From assembly GCF_000003815.2 (NCBI RefSeq), contig NC_049990.1:16487742-16551741 (forward strand): a DNA stretch of 64,000 bases. The letters run 5' to 3'. Shown one piece after another: positions 32,600-33,942 of this stretch. A program made the translations under genes and the position numbers. This stretch comes from Branchiostoma floridae (taxonomy: Eukaryota > Chordata > Leptocardii > Amphioxiformes > Branchiostomatidae). The notes below the pieces were generated by a model. The model was not told the DNA's origin, did not search any database, and worked only from the letters and a program-made list of their open reading frames with translations. Positions within the stretch are counted from its first letter, which is position 1, and every line of letters starts with the position of its first letter.

Positions 32600-33942
32600 A
32601 TGCATCTCTTCGTACAAAGCAAGAAAAACTACGGACTTCTGGGGATCACCGGAGAGGAGACCATCCGGAACATCAAGGAGCGAGTCTTCAAGCTGGAGGG
32701 TCTGCCCGTGGAACAACAGATCCTGTACTACTCCGGCAAACCGCTAGAGGACGCTGCTACGCTGCTCGGCTGTGGGATACCGGATATGGGGACACTGGAC
32801 GTGAATGTGCGCACACGTGGAGGTAAAGTGTTCTGACTTTTGTCTTTTGTCTCTGAACGTTGTAAGTGTTGGTGACTGGTATTAAATTCTTCCTAGTTCT
32901 TGCTTTACGACAAGCTAATATATCTAAGAATAATCGTCCAAGGTATTGTTGAAAGCTATCAATCATTACTTTTTAATGCACAGCAAAAGCATACTGTTTT
33001 ACTCTAATGTCCATGGGTTCCGCCATAAAGATTTGTGACGTCATAGGTCGGCCATCTTGCTTATCACATGTTGTCACAGCGAAATGTTATGACACAGTTT
33101 AAGATAGGACGATAAGGGTTATTTTCAACGAGCCCTTTGTTTATTGTCGACTAACCTTTAAAACAGTCAAAAAACACCCGACAATATCTTCCAAATATCA
33201 TTAAGGGTGTATGTTTTATATTTCTTAATTTTAATCTCCAGTTTGTTTGTTTATTAGGAGCCACGTACAAGGTGACCTTCAAGACCCCGGATGGAGATAA
33301 GACGATTGAGTGTCCCGAAGACGAATTTCTTTTGGACGTAGCTGAAGAAGTAAGCCTTTTATCCATTCATCACACTTGTGACTTGAAGAAATGTTACAAA
33401 AAAATACACTGGCATCAGTTAAGTAACATATGCATATGTAACAAATGAAGTTACATAGAGAGACGGGCGTTATAAACTTCCTACCACGTTTGACCAATTG
33501 CTGACGTCACGTATCCGCAAGATCACGTGTTAATTAGATCACGTATTTGTAACTCTCGCGAGTTTACCTTCTGAAGTGATTGATCCTGAAGAGTGGTCGT
33601 TTAAATTAATTTGATTCGTATATTCATTTGTGTTGGGAAAAAGTTTGTACTATAAAGTTTTATACAGTAACTGTTGCAACATGAAGGTGGTGATGACAGA
33701 AATGATTACAATGAAAATCATGACCCTTTTTCCAAATGCAGAAAGACGTGGACATCCCCTACGACTGCCGGGCGGGTGCATGTTCCACCTGTACCGGTAA
33801 GATCGTGTCTGGCACCGTGGACCAGAGCGACCAGACCTTCCTGTCCGACGATCAAATCGCAGCAGGATACGTCCTGACCTGCGTGGCCCGCCCAACCAGC
33901 GACCTGGTCATCACTACCCACCAAGAGGAGTCCCTCTACTAA
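32600..33942 (+). CDS. Ubiquitin-like/plant-type ferredoxin fusion (copy C), complete
   Basis: Three coding exons: 32600-32822, 33258-33349 and 33742-33942 (GT-AG: donors gtaaag and gtaagc; acceptors tttattag and aaatgcag), giving 171 residues. Residues 1-75 are a ubiquitin-like domain ([48 protein letters not shown]) ending in Gly-Gly. Residues 76-171 are a 96-residue ferredoxin opening [18 protein letters not shown]. Cluster ligands are C39, C44, C47 ([11 protein letters not shown]) and C77 (YVLTC) in ferredoxin numbering, exactly the plant/cyanobacterial pattern and not the adrenodoxin CX5C. The tail is [14 protein letters not shown]. Intron 1 splits the second Gly codon at the domain border. 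The role is probably electron transfer; whether the Ubl is cleaved off is unknown. There is no transit peptide. The acceptor before the ATG is probably accag. Confidence 0.93.

What the first reader, a model, noticed from the sequence alone, without database searches (positions are those of the whole stretch)
32600..33942. Ubiquitin-like domain fused to a plant-type [2Fe-2S] ferredoxin in an animal genome
The three exons join in phase to 171 residues: a 75-residue Ubl and a 96-residue ferredoxin. The cluster ligands at ferredoxin positions 39, 44, 47 and 77 are the plant/cyanobacterial set. Animal mitochondrial ferredoxins are of adrenodoxin type (CX5CX2C), so a photosynthetic-type ferredoxin is unexpected. 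The ferredoxin begins at ATYKV, where mature chloroplast ferredoxins begin, so the Ubl takes the place of a transit peptide. Horizontal gain plus exon fusion is a plausible origin, but that is inference; I cannot say whether such a fusion has been reported.
Basis: partly seen in the sequence, partly recalled or inferred. Interest (0 to 1): 0.9.

Follow-up and report, generated by a model that had tools for sequence, protein, structure and literature searches.

The report
Lancelet ubiquitin-like–photosynthetic ferredoxin fusion
A lancelet, an animal, carries a gene that joins a ubiquitin-like protein, ending in what looks like a ready-made cutting site, to a ferredoxin of the kind used in photosynthesis, which suggests an acquired electron carrier that an animal cell may release and use.

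Summary
Confirmed. Window 32600-33942 (+) is a three-exon Branchiostoma floridae gene (GT-AG introns, 171 aa) identical to an NCBI model named 'ferredoxin-like'. Residues 1-75 are a FUBI-like ubiquitin-like domain ending in RTRGG; residues 76-171 are a plant/cyanobacterial-type [2Fe-2S] ferredoxin, not an adrenodoxin type. The junction RTRGG|ATYKV is unvarying in all 8 lancelet models found, from three species; no other taxon with the fusion was listed. The window holds more copies: an inverted duplicate whose third exon falls in an assembly gap, and three decayed or partial ones. Best reading: a horizontally acquired ferredoxin made as a cleavable Ubl fusion and released in the cytosol by a USP36/USP16-type deubiquitinase. 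Transcription and cleavage are not shown; the donor lineage is unresolved. A candidate client is the choline-monooxygenase-family Rieske oxygenase reported from lancelets, whose substrate there is unproven. No paper describing the fusion turned up, in a library without most subscription journals.

The parts
32585..32586 (+). Possible 3' splice site (AG) of a 5'-UTR intron just upstream of the start codon; homology with copy B also begins here
   Evidence: sequence; A/B homology starts at 32585; inference
32600..32822 (+). Copy A exon 1: FUBI-like ubiquitin-like domain, residues 1-74 and the first base of Gly75
32819..32822 (+). Gly74 codon and first base of Gly75 of the RTRGG|ATYKV junction (rest of Gly75 at 33258-33259; ferredoxin Ala1 at 33260-33262): predicted deubiquitinase cleavage site
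   Evidence: invariant in 8 of 8 lancelet proteins; cleavage itself is inferred
32823..33257 (+). Intron 1 (phase 1), GT...AG; if retained, the frame ends after RGG-KVF at 32836
33258..33349 (+). Copy A exon 2: end of Gly75 and ferredoxin residues 1-30
33350..33741 (+). Intron 2 (phase 0), GT...AG
33742..33942 (+). Copy A exon 3: ferredoxin residues 31-96 with all four cluster cysteines, and stop
34683..34688 (+). AATAAA, possible polyadenylation signal of copy A
   Evidence: sequence only
39767..39989 (-). Copy B exon 1 (Ubl, 98.7% identical to A over 75 residues, RTRGG kept)
39246..39337 (-). Copy B exon 2 (ferredoxin residues 1-30)
38416..38927 (.). Run of 512 N (assembly gap) where copy B's exon 3 is expected
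   Evidence: A 32585-33668 pairs with B 40004-38928 and A 34180-35959 with B 38415-36636; the missing A segment 33669-34179 is 511 bases and holds exon 3
36467..36637 (-). Fragment E: exon-3 remnant of another copy, cut off at ferredoxin Arg40 at the edge of the A/B duplication
26499..26630 (-). Copy C exon 1 remnant: Ubl residues 26-69 only
25645..25743 (-). Copy C exon 2 (diverged, 2-residue insertion)
24625..24825 (-). Copy C exon 3 with an in-frame TGA: decayed copy
14946..15155 (-). Copy D exon 2 region, reading frame broken; no Ubl exon found in the window
14307..14507 (-). Copy D exon 3 with an in-frame TGA at the same codon as copy C

Best explanation
The gene makes a cleavable precursor. 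A FUBI-type ubiquitin-like domain is made first and leads straight, through RTRGG, into a horizontally acquired photosynthetic-type [2Fe-2S] ferredoxin. A ubiquitin-specific protease (USP36/USP16 type, perhaps more broadly because the tail is RXRGG as in ubiquitin) cuts after Gly75. This releases the Ubl and a 96-residue ferredoxin that starts at ATYKV, as in chloroplast ferredoxins. The ferredoxin takes up its cluster and carries electrons in the cytosol. The most plausible client is a ferredoxin-dependent Rieske oxygenase, above all the choline-monooxygenase-family enzymes reported from lancelets, reduced through an NADPH flavin reductase. Shown: fusion, gene structure, domain identities, junction, conservation. 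Inferred: cleavage, cytosolic location, electron transfer, client, reductase.
For: In-frame three-exon gene. Ubl: of the 60 PDB rows shown (364 in all), matches over query 1-75 are FUBI-eS30 chains (48-55 bits) and one entry named Polyubiquitin-C (9o4m_C, 39.9 bits); the other ubiquitin matches start at residue 3 or later, nearly all at 13 or 14. Identity 39-43% to human FUBI and 36-39% to ubiquitin, both yardsticks recalled. FUBI's Phe4 and Pro47 are kept in 8 of 8 and Val40 is replaced by Ile, while the tail is RTRGG. USP36 and USP16 cleave Fubi-S30, and a single L72R change (RXRGG tail) gave partial reactivity with USP42 (PMC10611586, abstract and passages). FUBI-eS30 processing needs the diglycine and USP36 (PMC8354635, abstract and passages). 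RTRGG|ATYKV unvarying in 8 of 8 lancelet proteins. Ferredoxin: TIGR02008 150.6 bits against 81.15; TIGR02007 19.5 against 132.1. Cluster cysteines in 7 of 7; R40, S45, D60, F63, D67, Q68, E92 and E93, counterparts of Anabaena positions (roles recalled), also in 7 of 7, while three further positions checked (62, 65, 66) vary in one sequence each. Selection: Ubl exon A/B dN/dS 0.05 (6 synonymous: 1 non-synonymous); exon 1 differs at 3.1% and intron 1 at 9.2%. Client: CMO-family sequences reported from B. floridae (3), B. belcheri (4) and Saccoglossus (3), and from no other animal; the plant enzyme takes electrons from reduced ferredoxin (PMC6157903, passages).
Against: No RNA, protein or cleavage data. 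By whole-chain E-value polyubiquitin chains rank first, because their repeats add up. The tail is not FUBI's RXLGG, and Leu42 and Phe13 of FUBI are Tyr and Leu here, so USP36 recognition is not assured. Retained intron 1 would give a free Ubl with a KVF (A) or EVF (B) tail. Exon 3 evolves loosely between B. floridae copies (A/D dN/dS 0.75, A/C 0.88, A/E 0.42; C and D are decayed, E a fragment), and copy A has lost residues that the other six keep (S38D, D65S). Exon 2 A/B shows 3 non-synonymous to 1 synonymous change. Three of five copies in the window are decayed or fragments. Intron 2 differs least between A and B (0.9%), less than the exons, so gene conversion or recent exchange muddies the comparison. 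No reductase partner was identified. The CMO link rests on shared presence only, and the same paper's title calls the enzymes from which true plant CMOs arose 'oxygenases of unknown function', so the lancelet enzyme's substrate is open. Saccoglossus has CMO-family sequences but no such fusion was listed from it.
Confidence: 0.58

Rival explanations
1. The fusion is not cut. The Ubl stays attached and acts as a docking or turnover domain that couples the ferredoxin to proteasome or p97-type receptors, so the functional unit is the 171-residue protein.
For: Many Ubl domains are uncut adaptors (general knowledge). The Ubl is more conserved between species (mean 93.8%) than the ferredoxin (mean 78.1%; 14 pairs), as a binding module would be.
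Against: An uncut Ubl has no evident need of a terminal RGG, yet RTRGG is unvarying in 8 of 8 and falls exactly at the domain boundary. FUBI-like recognition residues are kept in part.
Confidence: 0.2
2. The product that matters is the free Ubl, a lancelet-specific modifier; the ferredoxin is a chaperone-like or passive carrier that is losing redox function.
For: The Ubl exon is under strong constraint (dN/dS 0.05) while exon 3 is loose. The Ubl has 4-5 lysines and an RTRGG tail as in conjugated modifiers. Retained intron 1 would encode the Ubl with a three-residue tail, as some modifier precursors have (comparison recalled).
Against: All four cluster cysteines and eight partner-contact positions are unvarying in 7 of 7 lancelet ferredoxins. 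Against Moorena the ferredoxin has 53.6 synonymous differences over 67 sites but dN only 0.186, so it was kept as a working ferredoxin for most of its history.
Confidence: 0.14
3. Gene-model artefact: the Ubl exon and the ferredoxin exons belong to separate transcripts.
For: No transcript was seen here. A stop codon follows Gly75 after three codons if intron 1 is kept. One NCBI model from this locus (P0003) is probably an artefact, joining exons of copy B to fragment E around a gap.
Against: Same junction in all 8 models found, from three species. The frame upstream of and through exon 2, and exon 3, hold no Met codon to start from, and phases match with GT-AG sites.
Confidence: 0.05
4. Contaminating cyanobacterial or algal DNA in the assembly.
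For: The ferredoxin is 78% identical to that of a Moorena cyanobacterium and 79% to an unnamed metagenome protein.
Against: Two introns, a FUBI-like Ubl exon in the same frame, several copies in one window, models from three species. Third-position G+C of the ferredoxin (0.71) is near the Ubl's (0.68) and unlike Moorena's (0.47), but this is weak, since a long open frame elsewhere in the window also has 0.47.
Confidence: 0.01

Closest known systems
FUBI-eS30 (FAU)
   Same: N-terminal FUBI-type Ubl starting at Met1, ending in Gly-Gly right before a small folded passenger; Phe4 and Pro47 kept; two B. lanceolatum models of the fusion are even named FAU
   Different: Passenger is a ferredoxin, not ribosomal protein eS30; tail RTRGG, not RXLGG; only 39-43% identical to human FUBI (yardstick recalled)
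Rare ubiquitin fusions to other proteins, e.g. ubiquitin-nickel superoxide dismutase in algae and fungi (PMC8122580, passages)
   Same: Ubiquitin-type domain in front of a non-ribosomal protein, there also a metalloprotein; purpose called unknown
   Different: Different Ubl (FUBI-like), different passenger, an animal host, and a passenger of photosynthetic type
Plant/cyanobacterial [2Fe-2S] ferredoxin (PetF, TIGR02008)
   Same: Cluster motif, length, fold, N-terminus ATYKV, most partner-contact residues
   Different: Encoded in an animal nuclear genome without transit peptide, behind a Ubl; no photosystem to reduce it
Animal mitochondrial ferredoxins FDX1/FDX2 (adrenodoxin type)
   Same: Function class: [2Fe-2S] electron carrier
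   Different: CX4CX2C here, not CX5CX2C; the related model TIGR02007 scores 19.5 bits against a cut-off of 132.1

Membership tests
Plant-type [2Fe-2S] ferredoxin (TIGR02008) | Score above the curated cut-off over the full model | tested here: met
   150.6 bits against 81.15, model 1-97 of 97
Plant-type [2Fe-2S] ferredoxin (TIGR02008) | CX4CX2CX29C cluster ligands | tested here: met
   C39, C44, C47, C77 in 7 of 7 lancelet domains
Plant-type [2Fe-2S] ferredoxin (TIGR02008) | Plant-type ferredoxin fold | tested here: met
   AlphaFold2 model, ferredoxin part above pLDDT 80 in 7 of 10 ten-residue blocks; the ten best Foldseek hits are plant-type ferredoxin chains, TM 0.86-0.95 by target, rmsd 1.1-1.5. 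The Ubl part of that model is too poor to use
Plant-type [2Fe-2S] ferredoxin (TIGR02008) | Binds a redox-active cluster of low potential | not testable with these tools
   needs expressed protein
FUBI/FAU (FUBI-eS30) | FUBI-type Ubl with Phe4, Val40 and Pro47 | tested here: inconclusive
   Phe4 and Pro47 in 8 of 8; Val40, called strictly conserved, is Ile in 8 of 8, a conservative change (positions from PMC10611586)
FUBI/FAU (FUBI-eS30) | C-terminal RXLGG tail | tested here: not met
   RTRGG in 8 of 8
FUBI/FAU (FUBI-eS30) | Passenger is eS30 | tested here: not met
   passenger is ferredoxin
Cleavable ubiquitin/Ubl fusion precursors | Ubl at the very N-terminus, Gly-Gly directly before a passenger | tested here: met
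   RTRGG|ATYKV; one B. lanceolatum model, P0004, has 42 residues before the Ubl, perhaps translated leader
Cleavable ubiquitin/Ubl fusion precursors | Cut by a deubiquitinase in the cell | not testable with these tools
   no proteomic data
Adrenodoxin-type ferredoxin | CX5CX2C motif and TIGR02007-type score | tested here: not met
   CX4CX2C; 19.5 bits against 132.1
Horizontally acquired gene | Closer to sequences of distant lineages than to animal homologues; tree nests it there | tested here: inconclusive
   Named non-lancelet hits are cyanobacteria, plants and an alga-like sequence, no other animal among the 120 listed per search (many hits are unnamed). In a 64-row tree the lancelet rows lie among cyanobacteria and green algae, but most forks are weak and the nine lancelet rows are not one clade; one clade is not rejected (p-AU 0.251)

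The most novel reading that the evidence does not exclude
Lancelets have rebuilt a chloroplast-style redox module in the animal cytosol: a photosynthetic-type ferredoxin, brought into use by fusion to a cleavable FUBI-type Ubl, feeds electrons to an equally foreign, plant-type, ferredoxin-dependent Rieske oxygenase of the choline-monooxygenase family, whatever its substrate there (glycine betaine synthesis is one possibility).
Probability: 0.2. Interest if true: 0.92.

Novelty: new variant of a known kind. Interest (0 to 1): 0.74.

Why it matters
If right, it shows how a foreign redox protein can be domesticated in an animal: joined to a host-type Ubl whose removal machinery already exists. 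It extends Ubl-processing fusions from ribosomal proteins to an electron carrier. It would also give a candidate electron donor for plant-type, ferredoxin-dependent oxygenases in lancelets, which can be tested with purified proteins.

Tried and rejected
Contamination, adrenodoxin-type ferredoxin and chance ORF were rejected (see rivals). Copy B was first read as a likely pseudogene that had lost its first cysteine (note). One search showed that its exon 3 probably lies in a 512-N gap and that 36637-36467 belongs to another copy, so that reading is withdrawn. NCBI model P0003 (172 aa) agrees with exons 1-2 of B plus fragment E and was left out of the ferredoxin profile and of the counts. It is kept in the '8 of 8' counts, which concern the Ubl and the junction only.

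The donor question failed: 96 columns resolve little and the bootstrap had not settled. A scan of GTDB genomes with two short patterns gave 76 loci, 75 of them cyanobacterial by record title and one Pedobacter. For the tree, 31 of these 76 did not match my motif filter, 16 more were not chosen and 29 were used, one ORF per locus (the last that matched, not always the best hit). The 44 rows labelled cyanobacterial are those 29, 3 PDB chains and 12 proteins, of which 7 are unnamed metagenome proteins. No red-algal, diatom or dinoflagellate row was included. The row 'winB_partial' is, as found later, a chimera of B exon 2 and fragment E, and 'winC_pseudo' is a decayed copy. The AlphaFold2 model is poor for the Ubl (blocks of pLDDT 34-66), so no inter-domain geometry is claimed. 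Rfam found nothing in the window. Neverland as client was considered (listing; passages of PMC12445004, and of PMC10623007) and ranked below the choline-monooxygenase family.

Searches for print: (64: no paper holds amphioxus, ferredoxin and ubiquitin together). One search listed six papers with Branchiostoma, horizontal gene transfer and ferredoxin; I opened only PMC6157903 of them. Beta-grasp review PMC1949818: 12 of 16 places with 'ferredoxin' seen, none mentions this fusion.

Full report
Observation. The three exons are at 32600-32822, 33258-33349 and 33742-33942 on the + strand, with GT-AG introns of phase 1 and phase 0, and translate to 171 residues. The protein is identical over its whole length to P0001, named by NCBI 'ferredoxin-like [Branchiostoma floridae]'. 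Pfam gives ubiquitin at 6-73 and Fer2 at 85-157. Public databases therefore hold the gene model; I found no account of what it is.

The ferredoxin. NCBIfam's plant-ferredoxin model TIGR02008 matches 76-171 with 150.6 bits (cut-off 81.15), while the ISC/adrenodoxin-type model TIGR02007 gives 19.5 (cut-off 132.1). The best PDB matches are cyanobacterial, algal and chloroplast ferredoxins over nearly the whole domain. A predicted model, good for this part only, has plant-type ferredoxins as its top structural matches. Identity is 78% to Moorena and 79% to an unnamed metagenome protein; for the second B. floridae sequence, P0002, it reaches 84% to Moorena and 86% to unnamed proteins. Cysteines 39, 44, 47 and 77 and the counterparts of Anabaena R42, S47, D62, F65, D69, Q70, E94 and E95 are unvarying in 7 of 7 lancelet domains; the counterparts of 64, 67 and 68 vary in one sequence each. 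That such positions matter for reductase contact is recalled; PDB titles list mutants at D62, S47, D68, Q70, E94 and E95.

The Ubl. Of 364 PDB sequences matched, 60 were shown. Polyubiquitin chains head the list, because repeated domains add up (31.5 bits each). Matches over residues 1-75 are FUBI-eS30 chains (48-55 bits) and one entry named Polyubiquitin-C (39.9 bits); the other ubiquitin matches start later, nearly all at residue 13 or 14. Identity is 39-43% to human FUBI and 36-39% to ubiquitin (both recalled). Phe4 and Pro47, which O'Dea et al. describe as conserved in Fubi and used by USP36, are kept in 8 of 8 lancelet proteins; Val40 is Ile, Leu42 is Tyr. The tail is RTRGG where Fubi has RXLGG. 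In that paper an L72R change, which gives RXRGG, let USP42 react in part, while USP16 and USP36 accepted every probe (abstract and passages). The lancelet Ubl thus looks like a FUBI with a ubiquitin-like tail. Van den Heuvel et al. show that FUBI-eS30 processing needs the diglycine and USP36 (abstract and passages). Cleavage after Gly75 is my inference from these. I did not obtain the lancelet FAU sequence itself.

A second reading of exon 1. If intron 1 stays in the message, the frame ends after RGG-KVF in copy A and RGG-EVF in copy B. Such a message would encode the Ubl with a three-residue tail. Whether it exists is unknown.

Distribution. The full-length search gave 3308 hits among 3339 candidates and listed 120; the eight best are lancelet fusions (three B. 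floridae, four B. lanceolatum, one B. belcheri), and none of the other 112 is listed with a ubiquitin domain. A search with residues 1-75 alone found the same eight among 12 candidates. A profile of seven lancelet ferredoxin domains scored the 7997 candidates sharing most words and listed 120: cyanobacteria where named, many unnamed, and one eukaryotic alga-like sequence (P0106); no animal by name. Candidates need shared five-residue words and a set length range, and the lists stop at 120, so absence elsewhere is not proved.

Copies in the window. Copy B lies on the other strand: A 32585-33668 pairs with B 40004-38928 (94.0%) and A 34180-35959 with 38415-36636 (95.8%). Between them is a run of 512 N, where 511 bases with exon 3 are expected. 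B may therefore be intact. NCBI model P0003 agrees with B's exons 1 and 2 but ends in the exon-3 fragment at 36637-36467, a remnant of a different copy, so it is probably an artefact of the gap. Copies C (26630-24625) and D (15155-14307) are decayed: C has lost both ends of the Ubl, D has no Ubl exon that I could find, and both have TGA at the same codon of exon 3. The family has thus been duplicating and decaying at this locus.

Selection. Between A and B the Ubl exon has 6 synonymous and 1 non-synonymous change (dN/dS 0.05) and differs at 3.1%, against 9.2% in intron 1. Intron 2 differs at only 0.9%, and exon 2 has 3 non-synonymous changes to 1 synonymous, so conversion between copies is likely and the exon 2 sample is small. 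Exon 3 of A against D, C and E gives 0.75, 0.88 and 0.42: loose, as expected where the partner is decayed or a fragment. Between species the Ubl (mean 93.8%) is better kept than the ferredoxin (mean 78.1%; 14 pairs). Against Moorena the ferredoxin has 53.6 synonymous differences over 67 sites and dN 0.186: long constraint as a ferredoxin. Third-position G+C of the ferredoxin exons (0.71) is close to the Ubl exon (0.68) and unlike Moorena (0.47), but a long open frame elsewhere in the window also has 0.47, so composition says little.

Origin. Horizontal gain is the best account, because no vertical animal relative appeared and the nearest named kin are cyanobacteria, algae and plants. The tree (64 rows, 96 columns) sets lancelets among cyanobacteria and green algae, but with weak forks; the nine lancelet rows, two of them imperfect, do not come out as one clade, though one clade is not rejected (p-AU 0.251). 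I cannot say whether the donor was a cyanobacterium or an alga, nor prove a single event.

Function. I saw no targeting sequence in the precursor (no predictor was run), so cytosol is the default (inference). Cytosolic [2Fe-2S] proteins are matured in human and yeast cells (PMC11126956, abstract and passages). A client is suggested by print: choline monooxygenase, which takes electrons from reduced ferredoxin in plants, has family members in B. floridae (3), B. belcheri (4) and Saccoglossus (3) and in no other animal examined there, with lateral transfer proposed (PMC6157903, passages). By its title that paper holds that true choline monooxygenases arose in Amaranthaceae from oxygenases of unknown function, so the lancelet enzyme's substrate is open. 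The passages I saw mention no lancelet ferredoxin. I put the whole module at 0.20 and the cleavable, working ferredoxin, whatever its client, at 0.58.

Novelty. Ubl-GG-passenger precursors are a known kind (ubiquitin-eS31, ubiquitin-eL40, FUBI-eS30; rare ones such as ubiquitin-nickel superoxide dismutase, whose meaning is called unknown; PMC8122580, passages). A FUBI-type Ubl on a photosynthetic-type ferredoxin in a chordate is a new variant. I found no paper on it in the searches listed under Tried and rejected; most subscription journals and all bioRxiv preprints are outside that library.

Noticed in passing
window 38416-38927: A 512-N assembly gap hides the expected third exon of copy B; NCBI protein model P0003 (172 aa) seems to bridge it with an exon fragment of another copy and is probably wrong.
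   Followed up: yes
window 32823-32836 (+) and the matching place in copy B: If intron 1 is retained, the frame ends after RGG-KVF (A) or RGG-EVF (B), which would give a free Ubl with a three-residue tail.
   Followed up: no
window 24625-24825 and 14307-14507 (-): Copies C and D share an in-frame TGA at the same codon of exon 3 (YP*SD), so one decayed before it was duplicated, or both were converted.
   Followed up: partly
P0004 (B. lanceolatum, residues 1-42): One B. lanceolatum model has a 42-residue, arginine-rich extension before the Ubl Met, which resembles a mitochondrial presequence by eye but may just be translated 5' leader.
   Followed up: no
window 19171-22173 (+): A 1000-codon open frame with a DUF294-type nucleotidyltransferase stretch and nine TPR_10 matches; part of it is a 132-base tandem array of about 8 copies.
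   Followed up: partly
window 709-8656: Tandem array of a 206-base unit, about 38 copies.
   Followed up: no
window 8836-10053 (-): Reverse transcriptase open frame (RVT_1, 5.6e-29).
   Followed up: partly
window 40634-57402: Long segments (about 0.8-2.2 kb, roughly 89-91% alike) repeated several times, with diverged inverted relatives at 26992-31637; content not identified.
   Followed up: no
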